64,000 bases of DNA from Streptosporangium sp. NBC_01756 (GTDB lineage: Bacteria > Actinomycetota > Actinomycetes > Streptosporangiales > Streptosporangiaceae). The notes below the pieces were generated by a model. The model did not search any database. It saw nothing but the letters and a program-made list of their open reading frames with translations, and was not told the origin of the DNA. Location of the stretch: positions 6,014,001 through 6,078,000 of the forward strand of contig NZ_CP109130.1 in NCBI RefSeq assembly GCF_035917975.1. The letters run 5' to 3'. The position numbers and the translations under genes are program-made. Position 1 is the stretch's first letter, and the number at the start of each line of letters is the position of its first letter. This document shows, in pieces, positions 42,164 to 57,976 of this stretch.

Positions 42164-43513
42164 TCAATCCTCCGAAATGAAGACGTTCTTGGTCTCGGTG
42201 AACGCGGACAGGGCGTCCGGACCCAGCTCCCGGCCGAGCCCGGACTGCTTGAAGCCGCCGAACGGAGTCCAGTAGCGGACGCTCGAATGGGAGTTGACGC
42301 TGAGGTTGCCCGCCTCGATGCCCCTGGCCACCCGGAGCGCGCGGCCGACGTCCCGGGTCCAGATGGAGCCGCTGAGGCCGTACCGGGTGTCGTTGGCGAG
42401 CCGTACGGCGTGCGCCTCGTCGTCGAACGGCACGACCGCCACCACCGGGCCGAAGATCTCCTCGGTGAACGCCGGGTCGGTCACCTCGGGGGTGAGGACC
42501 GTGGGCGGGAACCAGAAGCCCGGCCCCTGCGGGCAGGTCCCCCGCAGGTGGACCGGGCCGGTGACGAAGGAGGCCACCCGGTCGCGGTGCGCGGCGCTGA
42601 TCAGTGGGCCCATCTCGGTGCTCTCCTCACGCGGGTCGCCGACCCTGACCTTCAGCACCGCCGCGGCGAGCCGTTCCAGGAAGTCGTCGTACACCGATCG
42701 CTCGACCAGGATTCGGGAGCGCGCGCAGCAGTCCTGGCCCGCGTTGTCGAACACCGCGTACGGCGCGGTCGCGGCGGCCTTCTCCAGGTCGGCGTCCGCG
42801 AAGACCACGTTGGCGTTCTTGCCGCCCAGCTCCAGGGTGATCCGCTTGACCTGCGCGGCGCATCTGGCCGCGATCTCCTTGCCGACCTCGGTGGAGCCGG
42901 TGAACACGATCTTCGCCACGTCCGGGTGCTCGACCAGCCGGACCCCCGCCACCTCGCCCGTCCCGGGCAGGACCTGGAGGACCCCCTCCGGGAGGCCCGC
43001 CTCCAGGGCCAGCTCGGCCAGGCGCAGGGCGGTCAGCGGCGTCCACTCGGCGGGCTTGACGATCACGGTGTTGCCCGCAGCCAGGGCAGGGGCCACCCCC
43101 CAGGTCATGACGACCATCGGGAAGTTCCACGGCACGATCACACCGACGACGCCCAACGGCTCCTGGAAGGTGACGTCCAGTCCGCCGGCGACCGGGATCT
43201 GCCTGCCGTGGTCGCGTTCGGGCGCCCCGGCGTAGAAGTTCAGCACGTCACGGACGTTGCCCGCCTCCCAGCGGGCGTTGCCGACCGGGTGCCCGGCGCC
43301 TGCGACCTCCAGCTGGGCCAGCTCCTCGGCGTGCCGCTCCACCAGCGAGGCGAAGGCACGCAGCAGCCGGGCGCGGTCACCCGGGCCGACGGTGCGCCAG
43401 GTGGCGAAGGCACGCCTGGCACGCTCCACCGCCCGGTCCACCTCGGCGGGGTCCGCCGCCTCGACCTCGGTGAGCACGTCCTCGGTGGCCGGATTGATGA
43501 TCTTCACGTTCAC
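42164..43513 (-). CDS. aldehyde dehydrogenase (gamma-glutamyl-aminoaldehyde type suggested)
   Basis: 449 residues, NAD(P)-dependent. PWNFPMVV, FTGSTEVGKEIA, general base Glu228 (LELGGKN), catalytic Cys262 (NAGQDCC, where the normal GQxC Cys is followed by a second Cys), and EEIFGPVV are present. GTG 43513 overlaps the ligase-gene stop by four bases. In the Puu-type pathway this enzyme oxidises gamma-glutamyl-aminobutyraldehyde, consistent with the upstream glutamine-synthetase-like gene and a PuuD-like hydrolase nearby. The substrate is inferred from context. Confidence 0.9.
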   Translation of the reverse strand: MNVKIINPATEDVLTEVEAADPAEVDRAVERARRAFATWRTVGPGDRARLLRAFASLVERHAEELAQLEVAGAGHPVGNARWEAGNVRDVLNFYAGAPERDHGRQIPVAGGLDVTFQEPLGVVGVIVPWNFPMVVMTWGVAPALAAGNTVIVKPAEWTPLTALRLAELALEAGLPEGVLQVLPGTGEVAGVRLVEHPDVAKIVFTGSTEVGKEIAARCAAQVKRITLELGGKNANVVFADADLEKAAATAPYAVFDNAGQDCCARSRILVERSVYDDFLERLAAAVLKVRVGDPREESTEMGPLISAAHRDRVASFVTGPVHLRGTCPQGPGFWFPPTVLTPEVTDPAFTEEIFGPVVAVVPFDDEAHAVRLANDTRYGLSGSIWTRDVGRALRVARGIEAGNLSVNSHSSVRYWTPFGGFKQSGLGRELGPDALSAFTETKNVFISED

Positions 43514-44853
43514 ATCCGTTCGAATCCCCGGAACAGCTCCCAGTCGGTGACCGCCGCGTCGAAGGCGGCCAGCTCGACCCGGGCGTTGTTCGCGTAGTGC
43601 GTCACGACGTCCTCGCCGAAGGCGGTGCGGGCGATCTCGGAGCCCTCCCACAGCTCCAGGGCCTCCCGGAGGCTGCGCGGCACGGTCTCCGCGTCCGAGA
43701 CGTAGGCGTTCCCGGCGAACGGCTCCGCGAGGGAAAGTCCGTTCTCGATGCCGTACAGCCCGGCCGCGACCAGCGCCGAGACGGCCAGGTAGGGGTTGAC
43801 GTCGCCGCCGGGCACCCGGTTCTCGATCCGCAGCGACGGTCCGTGCCCGACCAGCCGCAGCGCGCAGGTCCGGTTGTCCACGCCCCACCTGACTGCGGTG
43901 GGGGCGAAGCTGCCCGCCACGTACCGCTTGTAGGAGTTGATGTTCGGGGCGTAGAGCAGCGTGAGCTCGCGCAGGCAGGCGAGCTGCCCGGCGATGAAGC
44001 ACCGTCCGGTCTCCGACAGCCCGTGCGGGCCGTCTCCGGCCATGACGGGCTCTCCGCCTGAGTCCCGCAGCGAGATGTGGATGTGGCAGGAGTTGCCCTC
44101 GCGCTGGTTCGGCTTGGCCATGAAGGTGATCGACATGCCCTCCTGGGCGGCGATCTCCTTGGCGCCGTTCTTGTAGACGACGTGGTTGTCGCAGCTGGTC
44201 AGCGCGGTGGCGTAGCGGAAGGCGATCTCGTGCTGACCGAGGTTGCACTCGCCCTTGGCCGACTCCACGTACATCCCGGCGCCCTCCATGCCGAGCCTGA
44301 TCCGGCGCAGCAGCGGCTCGACCCTGGCGGTGCCGAGGAGGGAGTAGTCGACGTTGTAGAGATTGGCCGGGGTCAGGTCGCGGTAGCCGCGCCGCCAGGC
44401 CTCCTCATAGGTGTCGTTGTGGACGACGAACTCCAGCTCGGTCCCGACGAACGCGTCCCAGCCCCGCCCGCCCAGCCGGTCGAGCTGCCGCCGCAGGATC
44501 TGCCGCGGCGAGGCGGTCACGTCCGAGTCGTCCTCCCACACCAGGTCGGCCATGAGCAGGGCCGTACCCTCCTGCCACGGCACCCGGCGTAGGGTGGACA
44601 GGTCGGGTCTCATCACGAAGTCGCCGTATCCGCGCTCCCATGACGACATCGCGTAGCCGTCCACCGTGTTCATGTCCACGTCCACGGCGAGCAGGTAGTT
44701 GCAGCCCTCGGAGGAGTGCCGCAGCACCTCCTCCAGGAAGTAGCGCGCGGACAGCCGTTTCCCCTGCAGGCGACCCTGCATGTCGACGACCGCCAGCAGC
44801 ACGGTGTCGATCCGTCCCGCACGCACCTCGTCGTGAAGCTCGCCGACGTCCAC
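43510..44853 (-). CDS. glutamine synthetase-like gamma-glutamyl-amine ligase (PuuA/GlnA4 type)
   Basis: 447 residues, GS fold. N-terminal beta-grasp DTVLLAVVDMQGRLQGKRL, metal/ATP residues in FVGTELEFVVHND and ECNLGQHEIAFRY, SITFMAKPNQREGNSCHIHISL, and RIENRVPGGDVNPYLAVSAL. The lack of the adenylylation-loop tyrosine and the short length place it with PuuA/GlnA3/GlnA4-like ligases that gamma-glutamylate polyamines or ethanolamine rather than ammonia. First gene of an operon with ALDH and SDR, divergent from a FadR-type regulator. Which amine is used cannot be read from sequence. Confidence 0.85.
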   Translation of the reverse strand: MDVGELHDEVRAGRIDTVLLAVVDMQGRLQGKRLSARYFLEEVLRHSSEGCNYLLAVDVDMNTVDGYAMSSWERGYGDFVMRPDLSTLRRVPWQEGTALLMADLVWEDDSDVTASPRQILRRQLDRLGGRGWDAFVGTELEFVVHNDTYEEAWRRGYRDLTPANLYNVDYSLLGTARVEPLLRRIRLGMEGAGMYVESAKGECNLGQHEIAFRYATALTSCDNHVVYKNGAKEIAAQEGMSITFMAKPNQREGNSCHIHISLRDSGGEPVMAGDGPHGLSETGRCFIAGQLACLRELTLLYAPNINSYKRYVAGSFAPTAVRWGVDNRTCALRLVGHGPSLRIENRVPGGDVNPYLAVSALVAAGLYGIENGLSLAEPFAGNAYVSDAETVPRSLREALELWEGSEIARTAFGEDVVTHYANNARVELAAFDAAVTDWELFRGFERM

Positions 44854-44926
44854 GCAGCCCTCCTTGCCGGAGCCTTATTGGGCTAATGTCAGACCATTGA
44901 GTTCCACCGGGGATCTCTTGTCAAGA

Positions 44927-45658
44927 GTGGGGACGAGATTGGACGAGTCGCGGCGGCTGGCGACCGTGCTGCGGCCGGTACGTGCGGGAAACGCGTTCGA
45001 GGAGACCGTGGAACGGCTGCTCCAGGCGATCAAACTCGGTGTGGTGACCGAGAAGCTGCCGCCGGAGCGGGAGCTCGCGGTGCGGCTCGGGATCAGCAGG
45101 GTCACCCTCCGCGAGGCCATCCGCGCCCTGCAGGAGGCGGGCTATCTCACCGTACGGCGCGGCAGGTACGGCGGCGCGTTTGTCATCTACTCCCCGCCGC
45201 GTCCCCGCCGGGGAGACCTGCGCAGGGCCGTGACCGACATGGGGACCGACGACCTGGCCGACGCGCTCACCTTCCGGATGGCCGTGGAGTGCGGTGCCGC
45301 CCAGGTGCTGGCCACCGCGGGGCTGGACGAGGCGGGGCGCGCCACGCTGCTCCTGCGGCTGCGCGAGGTCAACGAGGCCGGGCCCGACGACTACCGTCGC
45401 CTCGACACGGCCTTCCACCTGGCCGTCGCCGAGCTGACCGGTTCCCCGCTGCTCGCCGCGACCTGTGCCGACGCCAGGCTCCGGGTCACCGACCTGCTCA
45501 ACGCGATCCCGGTGCTCCAGCGCAACATCGAACACGCCGCCACCCAGCACGAGGCGATCGTAGCCGCGGTCCTGGCCCAGGACCCCGACGCCGCGCGGCG
45601 CGCGGTCGCCGAGCATCTTGAGGGCACCGCAGCGTTGCTGAGAGGGTTTCTCGCATAA
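44927..45658 (+). CDS. FadR/GntR-family regulator (FCD domain)
   Basis: 243 residues from GTG 44927 (the frame is open to 44864). The N-terminal GntR winged helix KLPPERELAVRLGISRVTLREAIRALQEAGYLTVRRGRYGGAFV is followed by an FCD ligand domain with the metal/ligand-type residues in FRMAVECGAAQ, LDTAFHLAVAEL and QHEAIVAAVL. Divergent from the GS-like operon. A GTCAGAC palindrome (44888-44894) in the gap is a candidate operator. Likely senses a pathway intermediate such as a gamma-glutamyl amine. Confidence 0.88.
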   Translation: MGTRLDESRRLATVLRPVRAGNAFEETVERLLQAIKLGVVTEKLPPERELAVRLGISRVTLREAIRALQEAGYLTVRRGRYGGAFVIYSPPRPRRGDLRRAVTDMGTDDLADALTFRMAVECGAAQVLATAGLDEAGRATLLLRLREVNEAGPDDYRRLDTAFHLAVAELTGSPLLAATCADARLRVTDLLNAIPVLQRNIEHAATQHEAIVAAVLAQDPDAARRAVAEHLEGTAALLRGFLA

Positions 45659-50662: not shown

Positions 50663-50706
50663 TTGACCGGTAGCCTCCGGGTGACAAATATGAATGCGTT
50701 CATTCA
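50663..50706 (+). promoter_or_regulatory. hutU promoter with operator TGAATG-N4-CATTCA
   Basis: TTGACC (50663-50668), a 17-bp spacer and AAATAT (50686-50691) form a plausible promoter. The perfect palindrome TGAATG-CGTT-CATTCA (50691-50706) overlaps the -10 edge and expected start point, the position of a repressor site. The same palindrome occurs before the second hut unit at 54238. Confidence 0.7.
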
Positions 50707-50728
50707 GTTTTGATGGGGAGGTTCGGTC

Positions 50729-52384
50729 ATGACCGGCAGCCGGATCGTGCGCGCACCACGCGGCACCACGCTCACCGCCAAGGGGTGGCCGCAGGAGGCG
50801 GCACTCCGCATGATCCAGAACAATCTGGACCCCGAGGTGGCCGAGCATCCTGAGCAGCTCGTCGTCTACGGCGGTTCGGGCAAGGCCGCCCGTGACTGGC
50901 GTTCCTTCGACGCGATCACCCGCACCCTGACCACACTGGAAGGCGACGAGACGCTGCTGGTGCAGTCCGGCCGCCCTGTCGGAGTGTTCCGCACGCACGA
51001 GTGGGCCCCCCGGGTCCTCATCGCCAACTCCAACCTCGTGCCCGACTGGGCCAACTGGGAGGAGTTCCGCCGCCTGGAGGCCGCGGGCCTGACCATGTAC
51101 GGGCAGATGACCGCCGGTTCCTGGATCTACATCGGCACCCAGGGCATCCTCCAGGGGACCTACGAGACCTTCGCGGCCGTCGCCGCCAAACGGTTCGGCG
51201 GCACGCTGGCCGGGACGATCACTCTCACCGCCGGGCTCGGCGGTATGGGCGGCGCCCAGCCGCTCGCCGTGACCATGAACGACGGGGTGGCGATCTGCGT
51301 CGACTGCGACCCCCGGTCCATCGAACGGCGGATCGAGCACCACTACCTGGACGTGCGGGCCGACAGCCTCGACGAGGCGCTGCGCCTGGCCTACCAGGCC
51401 CGGGACCAGCGCAGGCCGCTGAGCATCGGGGTCGAGGCCAACGCGGCCGAGGCCGTGCCCGAGCTGCTCCGCCGGGGCGCGGAGATCGACATCGTCACCG
51501 ACCAGACCTCCGCGCACGACCCGCTGATGTACCTGCCGACCGGCGTGGCCTTCGAGGACATGGCCGCCGAGCGGGAGAAGGACCCGGTCGGCTTCACCCG
51601 GAAGGCGCGCGAGGCCATGGCCAGGCATGTCGAGGCCATGGTCGGGTTCCAGGACGCGGGCGCCGAGGTCTTCGACTACGGAAACTCCATCCGGGGCGAG
51701 GCGCAGCTCGCCGGCTACACCCGAGCCTTCGACTTCCCCGGCTTCGTGCCCGCCTACATCCGGCCGCTGTTCTGCGAGGGCAGGGGACCGTTCCGCTGGG
51801 CGGCGCTGTCCGGGTCCGCCCGCGACATCGCCAAGACCGACCAGGCCATCCTTGAGCTGTTCCCGGACAACGAGCCGCTGGCCCGCTGGATCCGGATGGC
51901 CCAGGAGCGGGTCCATTTCCAGGGCCTGCCCGCGCGGATCTGCTGGCTCGGGTACGGCGAGCGCCATCTGGCCGGTGAGCGGTTCAACGACATGGTGGCC
52001 TCCGGCGAGATCGAGGCCCCCCTGGTGATCGGCCGGGACCACCTCGACTGCGGCTCGGTCGCCTCGCCGTACCGGGAGACCGAGGGCATGGCCGACGGCT
52101 CCGACGCGATCGCCGACTGGCCGCTGCTGAACGCCATGCTCAACGTGGCCTCCGGCGCCGCCTGGGTCTCCATCCACCACGGCGGCGGCGTCGGCATCGG
52201 CCGCTCCATCCACGCCGGCCAGGTCACCGTCGCCGACGGGACCAGGCTCGGTGGCGAGAAGCTGACCAGGGTCCTCACCAACGACCCCGGTACGGGAGTG
52301 ATCCGCCACGTCGACGCCGGCTACGACGAGGCCGTCACGGTCGCGGAGGAGCGCGGCGTCCGCGTCCCGATGCGCGAGTCCTGA
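50729..52384 (+). CDS. hutU: urocanate hydratase
   Basis: 551 residues, NAD-dependent enzyme turning urocanate into imidazolonepropionate, step two of histidine degradation. The N-terminus [28 protein letters not shown], the NAD loop [20 protein letters not shown] and the active-site region [15 protein letters not shown] are diagnostic; length is normal. ATG preceded by GGGGAGG. Followed by an RpiR-type regulator gene. hutH (histidase) is not in the window. Confidence 0.97.
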
Positions 52385-52517
52385 AGGGCGTGCGTGTCCC
52401 TCCCACCCGGTGCGTGAGCCGACTCACCCGGTGCGTGAGCCGGCCGGCCGGACCGCGCACCGGGTGGGGTGGGCGGGGGCGGGAATGCCCGCGGATGATC
52501 GAACGGTTGGAGGGGAC

Positions 52518-53354
52518 GTGGGTGACATACTCGATCAGCTTCTCGGGGATCGCCGGCTGTCGCCTGTGCAGCGGAGGATCGCGCGCTACCTCGACGACCA
52601 TCTGGCCGAGGCCATCTTCCTGTCCAGCGTGGAGCTTGCCGACCGGGCCGGGGTGAGCCAGCCGTCGGTGACCAGGTTCGCGACGGTGCTCGGGTTCGCG
52701 GGCTATCCCGAGCTGCGGCAGGCGTTGCGGCCCTTCGTGCTGGGCGAGCGGAACCCGTCACGGGCCAACGACCTGCAGACCGCGATCGATGGGGAGATCG
52801 AGAACCTGAGGAACGTCCGGGACCGGCTGGCCGACCCGTCGTCCGTCACCGAGCTGGCCACCCGGCTGGCCGGGTGCGAGCCGCTGCCGGTGCTCGGGCT
52901 GCGGGTCTCCAGCGGGCTGGCCACCACGTTCGCCTACTTCGCCCGCCGGATCCACCCCGACGTCCGCCTGCTGACCCACGGCGGCTCGGAGTTGGCCGAC
53001 GGCCTGCACGCGGCGCGGCGGGCGGGGGCGGCCTGGCTGGTCGCGGTGATCCTGCCCCGCTACCCGGCCGAGGCGGTGGCGGCCCTGGAGAGCGCCCGCG
53101 AGCTGGGCCTGCGGACAGCGGTGATCACCGACCGGCCGGACGTGCCGTTCGAGGCCGACGTGATCCTGGACGCCCCGGTCGGTGAGCGGCTGGTGTTCGA
53201 CTCGCACGCGGCGCCGCTCGCCCTGGCCATGGTGCTGGTGGAGGCCATGGCGGACGCGGCGCCGCTGCGGACGCAGGCCCGGCTGGAGGAGTACGAACGG
53301 ATGACCGACCGGGCCGGGGTCTTCGTCGACCAGCCGGGCCGGCTCCGAACCTGA
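52518..53354 (+). CDS. RpiR-family regulator (HTH plus SIS domain), putative hut repressor
   Basis: 278 residues. The N-terminal HTH_6 (LSPVQRRIARYLDDHLAEAIFLSSVELADRAGVSQPSVTRFATVLGFAGYPELRQALR) is followed by a SIS-type sugar-phosphate-like binding domain (about 115-250, GLRVSSGLATTFAYFARRI). GTG 52518 has GGAGGGG a few bases upstream; the frame is open to 52410. Located between hutU and the M20/hutF/hutI genes whose promoters share a palindrome, so it is the obvious candidate for binding TGAATG-N4-CATTCA. Ligand might be urocanate or a downstream intermediate (inference). Confidence 0.88.
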   Translation: MGDILDQLLGDRRLSPVQRRIARYLDDHLAEAIFLSSVELADRAGVSQPSVTRFATVLGFAGYPELRQALRPFVLGERNPSRANDLQTAIDGEIENLRNVRDRLADPSSVTELATRLAGCEPLPVLGLRVSSGLATTFAYFARRIHPDVRLLTHGGSELADGLHAARRAGAAWLVAVILPRYPAEAVAALESARELGLRTAVITDRPDVPFEADVILDAPVGERLVFDSHAAPLALAMVLVEAMADAAPLRTQARLEEYERMTDRAGVFVDQPGRLRT

Positions 53355-53356
53355 CC

Positions 53357-53428
53357 GGGTCTCCCCGGACCGGCACGCCTGTTTCCCATCGAGGGTCTCC
53401 TCGGACCGGCACGCCTGTTCCCATCAAG
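53357..53428. repeat. 36-bp tandem repeat, two imperfect copies
   Basis: Copies start at 53357 and 53393 and share CGGACCGGCACGCCTGTT with a few differences around it. Non-coding, between the regulator and the SDR gene. A GACCGGCCAGGTG duplicate follows near 53460-53505. Confidence 0.75.
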
Positions 53429-53530
53429 GATTTCCCCGGTCGACGCTCGGGTGAGGCCACTGACCGGCCAGGTGCCTCAGCGAGCGGACCGGCCAGGTGG
53501 GAGCGAGGGCGCCGGAGTAGGGTGAACCGT

Positions 53531-54217
53531 ATGTCCGAACGCCCGACCGCACTGGTCACCGGAGCCTCCCGAGGGGTCGGCGCCGCCATCGCGCACGCCC
53601 TCGCCCCCACCCACGACCTGCTGCTCGGCGGGCGGGACACCGAGGCGCTGGCCAAGGTCTGCGCCGGGCTGCCGGACGCGCGGCCCTGGCCGGTGGAGCT
53701 CACCGCCGTCACCGAGGCCGATGTCGCCGGAATCGACCGGCTCGACGTGCTGGTGCACAGCGCCGGGGTGGTGACCCTGGGGCGGATCGCCGAGACCCCC
53801 GCCGAGGTCTGGCGGCGGACGATGGAGGTCAACGTGGTCGCGGTGGCCGAGCTGACCCGGCTGCTGCTGCCCGCGCTGCGCGCGGTCCACGGCCAGGTGG
53901 CGCTGGTCAACTCGGGGGCGGGACAGCGGGCCAACCCGGCCTGGGGATCCTACGCGGCCAGCAAGTTCGCGCTGCGCGCCTTCGCCGACGCGCTCCGGCT
54001 GGAGGAGCCCGACCTCCGGGTGACCACGGTCTACCCGGGACGGGTGGACACCGACATGCAGCGCAGTGTGCGGGAGCAGGAGAGCGGGACCTACGAGCCG
54101 GAGAGATACCTGGCGCCGGAGTCGGTGGCCAGGGCGGTGGTCGCGGCCGTGACGGCCTCTCCCGACGCCCATGTCACCGACATCACCGTCCGCCCGACGG
54201 CTGGACCCGTGCGCTGA
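53531..54217 (+). CDS. short-chain dehydrogenase/reductase
   Basis: 228 residues, classical SDR: TGASRGVG cofactor loop at residues 10-17, VHSAGV, VNSGAG with the catalytic Ser, and YAASK (Tyr/Lys). The short length and CxxDMQ-type end (RVDTDMQRSV) resemble small NADP-dependent SDRs of the YbbO/SDR-a type. ATG 53531 with AGGGTGA upstream. It sits inside the hut cluster but lacks an obvious role in histidine degradation, so it may be a passenger. Confidence 0.85.
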   Translation: MSERPTALVTGASRGVGAAIAHALAPTHDLLLGGRDTEALAKVCAGLPDARPWPVELTAVTEADVAGIDRLDVLVHSAGVVTLGRIAETPAEVWRRTMEVNVVAVAELTRLLLPALRAVHGQVALVNSGAGQRANPAWGSYAASKFALRAFADALRLEEPDLRVTTVYPGRVDTDMQRSVREQESGTYEPERYLAPESVARAVVAAVTASPDAHVTDITVRPTAGPVR

Positions 54218-54230
54218 GGGCGGCGTCGGC

Positions 54231-54259
54231 TCGCCAATGAATGACTCCATTCAGATAAT
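54231..54259 (+). promoter_or_regulatory. leaderless promoter and operator of the second hut unit
   Basis: TCGCCA (54231-54236), 17 bp, GATAAT (54254-54259), and the ATG of the next gene 7 nt downstream give a typical leaderless actinobacterial promoter. The spacer contains TGAATG-ACTC-CATTCA (54238-54253), identical in both arms to the hutU operator. Confidence 0.7.
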
Positions 54260-54265
54260 GGAGGG

Positions 54266-55441
54266 ATGTTCGACGAGATGTGGGGTGCCATCGCGCACCT
54301 CGGACGTGACGCCCGGACCCGGGGCTACCTGCGCGACGCGTGGTCGCCCGCCGATCTGGAGCTACGGCAGTGGTTCCGGCAGGAGGCCGCACGGCGGAGC
54401 CTCGACCTGAGAGAAGACCGCAACGGGAACCTGTGGGCCTGGTGGGGTGACCCGTCGGGCCGGCCGGGGGTCGTCACGGGCAGCCACCTCGACTCGGTAC
54501 GCCACGGCGGCGCCTTCGACGGTCCCCTCGGCGTCGTGTCCGCCTTCGCCGCCCTCGACACGCTGCGGGCCAGGGGCTTCGAGCCCGGCCGCCCGCTGGG
54601 AGTCGCCTGTTTCACCGACGAGGAGGGGGCCAGGTTCGGGGTCCCCTGCATGGGCTCCCGGCTGCTCACCGGCGCACTCGACGCCGACCGGGCGCGTGGC
54701 CTGACCGACGACGACGGCGACTCGATGGCCGAGGTGCTGCGCCGGTCCGGACGCGATCCGGGCGGGCTGGGCCGCGACGACGAGACGCTCGGCCACGTCG
54801 GCGTCTTCGTGGAGCTCCACGTCGAGCAGGGCCAGGAACTGGTCCACCGGGACGCGCCCGTCGGCGTGGCCGCCGCCATCTGGCCACACGGCCGCTGGCG
54901 CTTCGACTTCCACGGCCAGGCCAACCACGCGGGCACCACCCGGCTGGAGGACCGCGACGACCCGATGCTGCCCTTCGCCCGGACCGTGCTGCACGCACGC
55001 CAGGCCGCCCAGCGGCAGGGGGTGGTGGCCACCTTCGGCAGGGTCCGCGTGTCGCCCAACAACGCCAACGCCATCCCGGGGCTGGTCAGCGCCTGGCTGG
55101 ACGCCCGAGGCGGTGACGAGGACGCGGTCCGCGACCTGGTCTTCGAGCTGACGGACTTCTCCGGGGCCGAGGTCAGCGCCGAGTCGTGGACCCCCGTCGT
55201 CGACTTCGACGAGGCTCTGCGGGAGCGGATCGTCTCGGTCCTGGGGGGCGTGCCCGTTCTGCCGACCGGGGCCGGCCACGACGCCGGGATCCTGGCTTCC
55301 GCGGGTGTGCCCAGCGCGATGGTGTTCGTTCGCAATCCAACGGGAATCTCACACTCCCCGGACGAACACGCCGAGGCGGCCGACTGCCACGCGGGCGTCG
55401 CCGCCCTCGCGACCACCCTGGAGGAGCTGTGCCGGAGCTGA
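54266..55441 (+). CDS. M20-family amidohydrolase (allantoate/N-carbamoyl amino acid hydrolase-like), hut-linked
   Basis: 391 residues, zinc-dependent. GSHLDSVRHGGAFDGPLGV (metal His and Asp), TDEEGARFG (catalytic Glu), HVEQGQ, and the dimerisation lid with HGQANHAGTT are all present. Located immediately before hutF, its stop overlaps the hutF start by 13 bases. In hut clusters with HutF the product is N-formylglutamate, normally split by HutG. No HutG is seen here, so this M20 enzyme is a candidate deformylase replacement (inference). Its message is probably leaderless. Confidence 0.88.
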   Translation: MFDEMWGAIAHLGRDARTRGYLRDAWSPADLELRQWFRQEAARRSLDLREDRNGNLWAWWGDPSGRPGVVTGSHLDSVRHGGAFDGPLGVVSAFAALDTLRARGFEPGRPLGVACFTDEEGARFGVPCMGSRLLTGALDADRARGLTDDDGDSMAEVLRRSGRDPGGLGRDDETLGHVGVFVELHVEQGQELVHRDAPVGVAAAIWPHGRWRFDFHGQANHAGTTRLEDRDDPMLPFARTVLHARQAAQRQGVVATFGRVRVSPNNANAIPGLVSAWLDARGGDEDAVRDLVFELTDFSGAEVSAESWTPVVDFDEALRERIVSVLGGVPVLPTGAGHDAGILASAGVPSAMVFVRNPTGISHSPDEHAEAADCHAGVAALATTLEELCRS

Positions 55442-56787
55442 ACTACTGGTGTGAGCTGGCCTGGCTACCGCCCGGCGAGGTCGTCGCGGGGGTGCTCGTC
55501 CGGGTCGAGGGCTCCCGGATCGCGGAGATCACTCCCGGTATGGCCGACCCGCCCGCGGGAGCCGTCCGGCTCGACGGGCTGACCGTCCCCGGCCTGGCGA
55601 ACGCGCACTCCCACGCCTTCCACCGGGCCATGCGGGGGGTGACGCAGCGGGAGAAGGGCAGCTTCTGGACCTGGCGCGAGCAGATGTACGGCGTGGCCGC
55701 GACGCTGAACCCCGACTCCTACCTCAAGCTGGCCAGGGCCACGTTCGCCGAGATGGCGCTGGCCGGGATCACCGCCGTCGGGGAGTTCCACTATCTGCAC
55801 CACGGGCCGGGCGGCACGCCGTACGACGACCCGAACGTCATGGGCCACGCGCTCGTCCAGGCCGCGCGGGACGCCGGTCTGCGCATAGCCCTGCTGGACG
55901 CCTGCTATCTGAGCGGCGGGTTCGGCGCCCCGCTGGCCGGCACCCAGCTCCGCTTCGGCGACGGCGACGCCGACAGGTGGGCCGTACGGGTCGAGGCCCT
56001 CGCCGACGTCTACCGGAAGGCCGAAGACGTGGAGGTCGGGGTGGCCGTCCATTCGGTCCGCGCGGTCCCCTGCGAGCAGATGCCGACCGTCAGCAGGTTC
56101 TCCCACCAGCACGCGTTCCCGATGCACGTCCACGTGTCGGAGCAGCGCGCGGAGAACGCCGCCTGCGTGGAGATGTACGCCGCCGGCCCGGTCCGGGTGC
56201 TGGCCGAGCACGACGTGCTCGGCCCCCGCTCCACGGCGGTGCACGCGACGCACGTGTCCGACTCCGACATCGCGCTGCTCGGCCAGTCGGGCACCCACGT
56301 CTGCATGTGCCCGACGACCGAACGCGACCTGGCCGACGGCATCGGCCCGGCCAGGGCGCTGTCCGAGGCGGGCTCGCCGATCACCCTCGGTTCGGACAGC
56401 CACGCGGTCGTCGACCTGTTCGAGGAGGCCCGCGCGGTCGAGCTGGACGAGCGGCTGGCCACCGAGCAGCGCGGACACTGGACGGCCGCCGAGCTGCTCC
56501 AGGCCGCGACCGCCGCCGGGCACGCCTCTCTGGGCTTCCCCGACGCGGGCATGCTCGTGCCGGGCGCGTGGGCGGACCTGGTGTCCGTGCGACTGGATTC
56601 GGTCCGTACGGCGGGCGCGTCCGCCGGTGGCGCCCCGGAGATGGTGGTCTTCGCCGCGACGGCCGCGGATGTGCACTCGGTGGTGTCGGGCGGCAACCGG
56701 GTCGTGGTGGATGGCCGGCACGCGCTCGGGAACGTCGGTGCGCTGCTCGGCGAGGCGATCGCCGAGGCGCGGGGAGAGAAGGAGTGA
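55429..56787 (+). CDS. hutF: formimidoylglutamate deiminase
   Basis: 452 residues, amidohydrolase superfamily. Zinc motif [13 protein letters not shown] (about 58-70), [15 protein letters not shown] and [15 protein letters not shown] agree with HutF, which deiminates N-formimidoyl-glutamate to N-formylglutamate. GTG 55429 with GGAGG 4 nt upstream gives [16 protein letters not shown]. Coupled by overlap to the M20 gene. The stop is inside the first copy of a 33-bp-offset duplication that carries the hutI start region. Confidence 0.92.
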
Positions 56788-56832
56788 GCGGCCGGTGAGG
56801 GGCCGGGAGATGAGGAGTGAGCGGCCGGTGAG
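56781..56832 (+). repeat. 19-bp direct repeat duplicating the hutI start context
   Basis: The 19-base string at 56781-56799 recurs at 56814-56832, offset 33 bp. Each copy has GGAG followed about 10 nt later by GTG, and both GTGs (56795 and 56828) are in the hutI frame. Confidence 0.85.
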
Positions 56833-57976
56833 TGTGCTCTTTGATCGGATCGGACTGCTCTACACCGGGGATCCGGAGCGGGAGGAGATCGAGAACGCCG
56901 CCCTGGTGATCGAGGACGGCCGGGTCGCATGGGCCGGAGCCGCAGGCGAGGACCCCGGCGCCGACGAGCGCGTGGACGTAGGCGGGCGCTGTGTGATCCC
57001 CGGCTTCGTCGACAGCCACGCCCATCTGGTCTTCGCCGGCGACCGCACGGCCGAGTTCGCCGCCCGCATGTCGGGGGAGCCCTACACGGCCGGGGGCATC
57101 CGCACCACGGTCGCCGCGACCCGTGCGGCCCCCGGCGACCTCCTGGCGAGCAGGACGGCCGCCCTGGTCACCGAGATGCTCGCCCAGGGAACCACCACCG
57201 TCGAGATCAAGAGCGGCTACGGCCTGACGGTCGAGGACGAGCGCCGCTCCCTGGAGATCGCCCGGCGGTTCACCGCGGAGACGACCTATCTGGGCGCTCA
57301 CATCGTGCCACCCGGCGTGTCATCAGCCGACGACTACGTCCGTACGGTCACCGGGGAGATGCTCACGGCCTGCGCGCCGTACGCCAGGTGGGTCGACGTG
57401 TTCTGCGAGCGCGGCGCGTTCGACGCCGACCAGAGCAGGGAGATCCTGCTCGCCGGGGTGAAGGCCGGGCTGCTGCCGCGGATCCACGCCAACCAGCTCG
57501 GCAACGGTCCGGGCGCGCAGATCGCCGCCGAGGTGGGCGCCGCCTCGGCCGACCACTGCACCCACCTGACCGCCGAGGACGTCCTCGCGCTGTCCTCGGC
57601 CGGGGTGGTGGCCACCCTGCTGCCCGGCGCGGAGTTCTCCACTCGCTCGCCGTACCCGGACGCGCGCCGTCTGCTGGACGCGGGGGTGACCGTCGCACTG
57701 GCCACCGACTGCAATCCCGGCTCGTCCTTCACCTCCTCCATGCCGTTCTGCCTGGCGTTGGCGGTCCGCGAGATGCGGATGACGCCGCTGGAGGCGGTCA
57801 GGGCCGCCACCTACGGCGGAGCCAGGGCACTGCGCCGCGACGACGTCGGAACAGTGCGAGCGGGAGCCCGCGGTGACCTGGTGGTGCTGGACGCCCCCTC
57901 CTACGTCCACCTCGCCTACCGCCCCGGCGTGCCCCTGGTGGCTCAGGTCTGGCGGGAGGGCCGTCGCCTGGTTTGA
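56828..57976 (+). CDS. hutI: imidazolonepropionase
   Basis: 382 residues from GTG 56828 (393 from GTG 56795). Amidohydrolase opening the imidazolone ring to formimidoylglutamate, step three of histidine degradation. [44 protein letters not shown] and [15 protein letters not shown] are HutI hallmarks. Last gene of the hut cluster; a 213-bp gap with a sigma-R type promoter precedes the sigma-factor gene. Confidence 0.95.

What the first reader, a model, noticed from the sequence alone, without database searches (positions are those of the whole stretch)
50691..54253. Identical TGAATG-N4-CATTCA operators at both hut transcription units, with an RpiR-type regulator between them
The perfect palindrome occurs at 50691-50706 (hutU promoter, over the start point) and 54238-54253 (in the -35/-10 spacer of the leaderless M20-hutF-hutI promoter). 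I saw it nowhere else in the window. The only regulator in the cluster is the RpiR-family protein at 52518-53354. Together they define a probable hut regulon in which an RpiR protein, rather than the HutC/GntR type described in proteobacteria, represses histidine use.
Basis: partly seen in the sequence, partly recalled or inferred. Interest (0 to 1): 0.7.

Follow-up and report, generated by a model that had tools for sequence, protein, structure and literature searches.

The report
RpiR-type regulator of histidine breakdown
In this soil actinobacterium and its relatives, one identical DNA switch site sits in front of both blocks of histidine-breakdown genes, and the evidence points to a neighbouring regulator from a family usually known for sensing sugars, here put to work on histidine breakdown.

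Summary
TGAATG-N4-CATTCA occurs at 50691-50706 and 54238-54253 and nowhere else in the 9.0 Mb genome (about 0.045 exact sites expected). In 43 distinct genomes with an ortholog of the RpiR gene (chosen by protein, not motif), the site precedes hutU in 37 of 37 loci that hold hutU (28 perfect, 9 with one G-to-A change) and M20 in 38 of 38 (all perfect), while flanks and spacer vary. In the five ortholog genomes without hutU and M20 there, one intact site remains. Twenty control hut loci without the ortholog have none with 0-1 mismatch. The exact palindrome also adjoins distant RpiR genes, and NanR, a solved RpiR protein, recognises a similar repeat. A second RpiR clade has a variant site, once per genome, at hutU in 10 of 10 Streptomyces tested. 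The mechanism (repressor released by urocanate or a near metabolite) is inferred; hutH lies outside the regulon. Ten literature searches found no RpiR hut regulator; those seen in print are GntR (HutC) and IclR (HutR). Binding, sign and ligand are untested.

The parts
50691..50706 (.). operator 1, TGAATGCGTTCATTCA, hutU promoter, 22 bp before the hutU start
   Evidence: present in 37 of 37 hutU promoters of ortholog loci, 28 perfect
50663..50691 (+). possible hutU promoter: TTGACC (50663-50668) and AAATAT (50686-50691); an alternative -10, TAGCCT (50671-50676), is the better conserved element across genera
   Evidence: read from sequence; start point not mapped
50729..52384 (+). hutU, urocanate hydratase
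   Evidence: TIGR01228 907 bits
52518..53354 (+). RpiR-family regulator (HTH_6 plus diverged SIS domain), proposed to bind both operators; lies directly downstream of hutU on the same strand
53531..54217 (+). short-chain dehydrogenase between the two units; not hut-specific (kept at loci that lost hutU and M20; not found at some hut loci such as L107, L109, L112, L184, L185)
54238..54253 (.). operator 2, TGAATGACTCCATTCA, in the -35/-10 spacer of the M20-hutF-hutI promoter, 12 bp before the M20 start
   Evidence: perfect in 38 of 38 M20 promoters
54254..54259 (+). -10 box GATAAT abutting operator 2; 6 bp before the ATG, as in a leaderless transcript
   Evidence: start point not mapped
54266..55441 (+). 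M20-family amidohydrolase (NCBIfam PRK09290.1-4, named allantoate amidohydrolase); probably the formylglutamate-hydrolysing step here (inferred from its place with hutF)
55429..56787 (+). hutF, formimidoylglutamate deiminase (GTG start at 55429)
56810..57976 (+). hutI, imidazolonepropionase (ATG 56810 or GTG 56828)

Best explanation
The RpiR-family protein at 52518-53354 is the dedicated regulator of the urocanate-to-glutamate part of histidine breakdown. A dimer (or dimer of dimers) binds the 16-bp palindrome TGAATG-N4-CATTCA in the promoters of hutU (with rpiR behind it) and of M20-hutF-hutI. The sites lie over the hutU start region and inside the -35/-10 spacer of the M20 promoter, so binding most likely blocks RNA polymerase (repression). 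A pathway metabolite, most likely urocanate made by the unlinked and separately controlled hutH, binds the diverged SIS domain and releases the DNA. Shown by comparative sequence analysis: the sites, their restriction to hut, their conservation, and co-occurrence with the RpiR gene. Inferred: binding by RpiR, repression rather than activation, and the identity of the ligand.
For: Exact sites only at the two hut promoters in 9.0 Mb, 0.045 expected. Half-sites carry 1.93 (hutU) and 2.00 (M20) bits per position against 0.97 and 0.64 in the spacer and 0.31-0.75 in the flanks, over 37 and 38 genomes. Of 100 genomes (own included), 24 of 26 with an RpiR ortholog have an exact site, against 5 of 74 without, none of these five at a hut locus. 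Twenty control hut loci without the ortholog: best match within 300 bp of hutU has 4-6 mismatches. Where hutU and M20 left the locus (G005, G007, G013, L186, L187) the sites are degraded or gone, except one intact site before hutF in G005 and a one-mismatch site in each of G005 and L187. The exact palindrome also lies just upstream of an RpiR gene of about 34% identity in G055 and between the sister-clade RpiR gene and an ABC ATPase gene, near an aromatic amino acid lyase gene, in Actinophytocola L245. A 49%-identical RpiR divergent from hutU in G062 has TGAATGATTGCATTCC between the genes. NanR of Streptococcus pneumoniae, an RpiR protein, recognises TCTGAAAGTACTTTTAGA and like sequences. Only four genes with the RpiR HTH were found in the genome. 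The AlphaFold model (pLDDT 87.6, pTM 0.65) matches NanR, RccR, MurR and 3sho.
Against: No binding or expression data. The genomes share ancestry, so the counts are not independent trials. The RpiR ortholog persists at five loci without hutU and M20, so it may have another role there or everywhere. No site lies before rpiR itself in the window. hutH, the first step, has no site. Eight of 49 exact places in the 100 genomes lie outside hut loci, two of them one site shared by G014 and G010 beside probable ABC-transporter genes. G063, of the same genus as G062 and with the same divergent RpiR-hutU pair, has no site with 0-2 mismatches. Promoter position suggests but does not prove repression; S. 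pneumoniae NanR is an activator.
Confidence: 0.8

Rival explanations
1. RpiR binds the sites but activates: ligand-bound protein helps RNA polymerase start transcription, as proposed for S. pneumoniae NanR.
For: An RpiR activator exists (NanR, passages read). In Streptomyces the clade-B site overlaps the probable -35 box with an extra half-site downstream.
Against: The sites lie in the -35/-10 spacer (M20; -10 box abutting in 37 of 38 by eye) and over or after the start region (hutU), not upstream of -35.
Confidence: 0.1
2. Another, unlinked regulator binds the palindromes; RpiR is only a neighbour.
For: Binding is untested; RpiR persists at five loci without hutU and M20; G063 has RpiR beside hutU but no close site.
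Against: The palindrome also adjoins distant RpiR genes (G055, L245, near-match in G062), and NanR recognises TGAAA-type arms. The IclR HutR has another operator.
Confidence: 0.08
3. The palindromes are not operators: chance, or core promoter or start-region sequence.
For: The hutU site abuts conserved promoter elements within Streptosporangium.
Against: About 0.045 exact sites expected against 2, both at hut; the two sites sit at different promoter positions; they persist across genera while flanks change.
Confidence: 0.02

Closest known systems
HutC (GntR family) regulon, Proteobacteria
   Same: a dedicated repressor of hut genes in a local regulon
   Different: unrelated protein family; reconstructed HutC regulons include hutH (PMC5343134, passages read); the window protein is HTH_6 plus SIS
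HutR (IclR family), Corynebacterium resistens
   Same: actinobacterial hut regulator encoded in the hut cluster
   Different: IclR family, operator GTCTGWWATWCCAGAC (PMC8222616, PMC3350403, passages read)
NanR (RpiR family), S. pneumoniae and V. vulnificus (4ivn, 9dqn)
   Same: HTH plus SIS architecture; recognition sequences such as TCTGAAACTACTTTCAAA have TGAA/TTCA arms like this operator
   Different: senses ManNAc-6-phosphate; arms are 2 bp closer; the 4ivn SSSGSTKE loop aligns with LPRYPAE here
RccR and HexR (RpiR family), Pseudomonas
   Same: RpiR family; pseudo-palindromic operators; RccR structures match the model
   Different: sense KDPG; operators TGTAGT/ACTACA and TTGTN7-8ACAA (PMC5489143, passages)

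Membership tests
RpiR transcription factors | N-terminal HTH_6 domain | tested here: met
   PF01418 50.1 bits, cut-off 28.3
RpiR transcription factors | C-terminal SIS fold | tested here: met
   model against SIS structure 3sho_A: target-length TM 0.85, rmsd 2.2. By sequence weak: PF01380 18.0 bits, below cut-off 25
RpiR transcription factors | phosphosugar-binding loop of the S-x-S-G-x-T type in the SIS domain | tested here: not met
   the 4ivn loop SSSGSTKE aligns with LPRYPAE. That this loop binds phosphosugar is recalled. The R-Y form is not unique: 3sho (VWRYLRDT) and the G055 protein (FRRYERDT) have it too. This bears on the ligand, not on membership, which rests on HTH plus SIS fold
HutC (GntR) hut repressors | match to TIGR02018 | tested here: not met
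   no TIGR02018 row for the RpiR protein at E 0.001
HutR (IclR) | IclR domain and GTCTGWWATWCCAGAC operator | tested here: not met
   no IclR row for the window protein; operator differs
hut regulon | operators confined to hut genes | tested here: met
   2 of 2 exact sites in the genome are at hut promoters
hut regulon | includes hutH | tested here: not met
   three lyase loci of 4.2-4.5 kb, best match 4 mismatches each
hut regulon | induction by histidine or urocanate | not testable with these tools
   needs expression data

The most novel reading that the evidence does not exclude
A broad actinobacterial branch of the RpiR family has given up phosphosugar sensing and become the histidine/urocanate regulator: its SIS ligand loops carry near-universal arginines (R129, R181) that could hold a carboxylate such as urocanate, and the branch controls hutU through TGAAT-type palindromes in Streptosporangiaceae and through its own variant (TGACTA-N4-TATTCA, once per genome, at hutU) in Streptomyces, and controls lyase and ABC-transporter genes in Actinophytocola.
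Probability: 0.5. Interest if true: 0.65.

Novelty: new variant of a known kind. Interest (0 to 1): 0.52.

Why it matters
Histidine breakdown has described regulators in Proteobacteria (HutC) and Corynebacterium (HutR); ten searches of the held library showed me none for Streptosporangiaceae or Streptomyces. This names a regulator, its operator and its target genes for Streptosporangiaceae, points to a related regulator and site at hutU in Streptomyces, and suggests that a sugar-phosphate sensor fold was turned into an amino-acid-metabolite sensor. Each claim is directly testable with one protein and a 16-bp probe.

Tried and rejected
hutH as a regulon member: no site at any of three lyase loci. 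The FadR-type GntR at 44864 as a hut regulator: 30.8 bits to the HutC model against a cut-off of 220, and it lies beside what look by eye like glutamine-synthetase and aldehyde dehydrogenase genes; rejected. Relaxed constraint on RpiR after hut loss: L186 has 9 changes at 98 otherwise invariant columns (R129L, R181P, E185D, F227S, D228N among them) and L187 has 14 (four of them gaps), against a leave-one-out median of 0 in 37 hut-keeping orthologs; but the hut-keeping L185 has 13 and L109 has 6, and G005, G007, G013 have 0-2, so this is only suggestive (L108's 44 come from a truncated match and were left aside). Degenerate genome scan with 2 mismatches: too noisy, 61 against 24 in the control. 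The hairpin between hutU and rpiR: -78.8 kcal/mol, z -2.78, 2 of 200 shuffles as stable; perhaps a terminator, not pursued. Orphan exact places (8 of 49): two are one site shared by G014 and G010; one is at the G055 RpiR gene; the other five show no clear link. The 'lost phosphosugar loop' as a mark of this branch alone: weakened, since 3sho and the G055 protein have a similar R-Y loop; I lowered the novel case from 0.55 to 0.5 for that.

Literature: ten searches showed no RpiR hut regulator; the library holds only open-licence papers. Passages read: PMC5343134, PMC8222616, PMC3350403, PMC2000904, PMC4746261, PMC5489143, PMC12713135 (a preprint). All other papers were seen as search listings only.
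Full report
OBSERVATION. They are the only hits in the window even with two mismatches and the only exact hits in the complete 9.0 Mb genome, where about 0.045 are expected. The genome belongs to Streptosporangium: same-genus genome G009 has a contig of the same length (40,587 bp) and an identical RpiR row to S. minutum M26.

ANATOMY. Order on the + strand: operator 1, hutU, rpiR, a short-chain dehydrogenase, operator 2, M20 amidohydrolase, hutF, hutI, then a sigma-70 family gene. Operator 2 directly abuts the -10 box (GATAAT here; ATAAT or TAnnnT in 37 of 38 loci by eye, 33 of 38 by the script's stricter rule, L185 the exception), which ends 6 bp before the start codon here, as in a leaderless message. 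Operator 1 ends 22 bp before hutU. If AAATAT is the -10, it covers the start point; if the better-conserved TAgcCT is, it lies just downstream. The rpiR gene follows hutU on the same strand, so it may be partly co-transcribed and autoregulated, though a strong hairpin lies between them.

CONSERVATION. I selected genomes by the RpiR protein, not the motif: own plus 25 relatives and 22 named loci (L167-L188), less 5 duplicates with identical RpiR (L167 and L099, L171 and L114, L174 and L107, L182 and L106, L188 and L111; one of each pair kept), giving 43 distinct genomes. In the 37 with hutU at the locus, all 37 have the site before hutU: 28 perfect, 9 with TGAATA in the left arm. In the 38 with M20 at the locus, all 38 sites are perfect. 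Information per half-site position is 1.93 bits (hutU) and 2.00 bits (M20), against 0.97 and 0.64 in the spacer and 0.31-0.75 in the flanks.

PRESENCE AND ABSENCE. Of 100 genomes (own included), 26 have the ortholog and 24 of these have an exact site; 74 lack it, 5 of these have an exact site somewhere, none at a hut locus. Twenty hut loci without the ortholog, picked by me from the family genomes with hutU, have no site with 0-1 mismatch in the 8-12 kb fetched (L144 and L145 have two-mismatch hits away from hutU), and 4-6 mismatches at best within 300 bp of hutU. Forty-one of 49 exact places in the 100 genomes lie at the hut locus (positions compared).

NATURAL EXPERIMENTS. In G005, G007 and G013 (one clade inside the genus) hutU, M20 and hutI have left the locus and a separate hutU-M20-hutF-hutI cluster sits beside a different RpiR (47-49% identity). 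At the old locus G005 keeps a perfect site before hutF and one with a single mismatch, G007 has a two-mismatch remnant, G013 none with 0-2 mismatches. Nonomuraea indica (L186) and Sphaerisporangium TRM90804 (L187) lack hutU, M20, hutF and hutI there; L186 has no site with 0-1 mismatch, L187 one with a single mismatch before rpiR. That RpiR persists in these five is against a purely hut role.

LINKING THE SITE TO RpiR. First, the exact palindrome also lies just upstream of an RpiR gene of about 34% identity, with a recognisable SIS domain and divergent from a BadF/BcrA-type ATPase gene, in G055. Second, in Actinophytocola, whose RpiR is sister to the Streptosporangiaceae clade (98/94 support), L245 has the exact site between rpiR and an ABC ATPase gene with an aromatic amino acid lyase gene downstream, and L200 a one-mismatch site between a lyase gene and a similar ABC gene (the L200 ABC gene by eye). 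Third, in G062 a 49%-identical RpiR is divergent from hutU with TGAATGATTGCATTCC between, and Actinocrinis L207 has two TGAATG half-sites upstream of hutU (best match 2 mismatches); against this, G063 with the same gene pair as G062 has no site with 0-2 mismatches. Fourth, NanR, an RpiR of S. pneumoniae, recognises TCTGAAAGTACTTTTAGA and like sequences (passages of PMC12713135). These are sequence arguments; binding has not been shown.

A SECOND CLADE. In Streptomyces, 58 of 61 genomes (G081 included) have a match of 70% identity or more to the G081 hut-side RpiR. Of 21 loci read (L117 and 20 that I fetched, mostly high-scoring), 17 have hutU within reach and all 17 carry TTGACTA-N4-TATTCA upstream of hutU; four (L294, L295, L297, L300) have no hutU in the stretch. 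Genome-wide, TGACTA-N4-TATTCA occurs exactly once in each of 10 of 10 Streptomyces genomes tested, by coordinates each time just upstream of hutU; it is absent from G005, G007, G013. Part of this conservation is the probable -35 box (TTGACT), so it is weaker evidence than in Streptosporangium. The 51-57% matches (L189-L246, 58 loci, mostly Streptomyces, some cut short by contig ends) are largely not hut-linked: only L207 has hutU in range.

LIGAND. The model has the RpiR fold (mean pLDDT 87.6, pTM 0.65; hits include NanR, RccR, 3sho, MurR), but Pfam SIS scores only 18.0 bits (cut-off 25). Where NanR 4ivn has SSSGSTKE the window protein has LPRYPAE, and R129, R181 and E185 are invariant in the 14-row alignment of this branch. 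R181 is less telling than R129: 3sho and the G055 protein also have an R-Y loop there. I read this as loss of the usual phosphosugar loop and a pocket that may take a carboxylate, with urocanate the best candidate because hutH, which makes it, lies outside the regulon. This is inference.

VERDICT. A hut regulon run by an RpiR-type protein is strongly supported by comparative genomics. Repression is likely from site position; ligand and binding need experiments. HutC and IclR-type HutR do a similar job with unrelated proteins.

Noticed in passing
L095, L097, L103 and L122, L123, L124 (G005, G007, G013): One Streptosporangium clade lacks hutU, M20 and hutI at the split hut locus and has a separate hutU-M20-hutF-hutI cluster with a different RpiR; rpiR, the dehydrogenase and hutF remain at the old locus.
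   Followed up: partly
L117, L281-L300: Streptomyces hutU promoters carry TTGACTA-N4-TATTCA near a hut-side RpiR gene (17 of 17 loci with hutU); one copy per genome in 10 of 10 genomes tested.
   Followed up: partly
L200 and L245 (Actinophytocola): RpiR, aromatic amino acid lyase genes and ABC-transporter genes lie together with this operator; possible histidine or urocanate uptake regulon.
   Followed up: partly
L301:4709-4724 and L302:4552-4567: The same exact site TGAATGATCGCATTCA in two related species beside what look by eye like ABC-transporter genes; possible extra target or another RpiR's site.
   Followed up: no
L128:2098-2113: Exact palindrome just upstream of an RpiR gene divergent from a BadF/BcrA-type ATPase gene in G055.
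   Followed up: partly
window 52385-52517: Very stable GC-rich hairpin with direct repeats between hutU and rpiR (z -2.78); possible terminator or attenuator.
   Followed up: partly
window 42164-45658: By eye, glutamine-synthetase-like and aldehyde dehydrogenase genes divergent from a FadR-type GntR regulator (the GntR); looks like a separate amine-catabolism unit.
   Followed up: no
L151 (G000:C1:762135-763637): The best hutH lies apart from the other hut genes, next to what looks by eye like an ArsR-type regulator gene and tRNA genes, so its control is separate and unknown.
   Followed up: no
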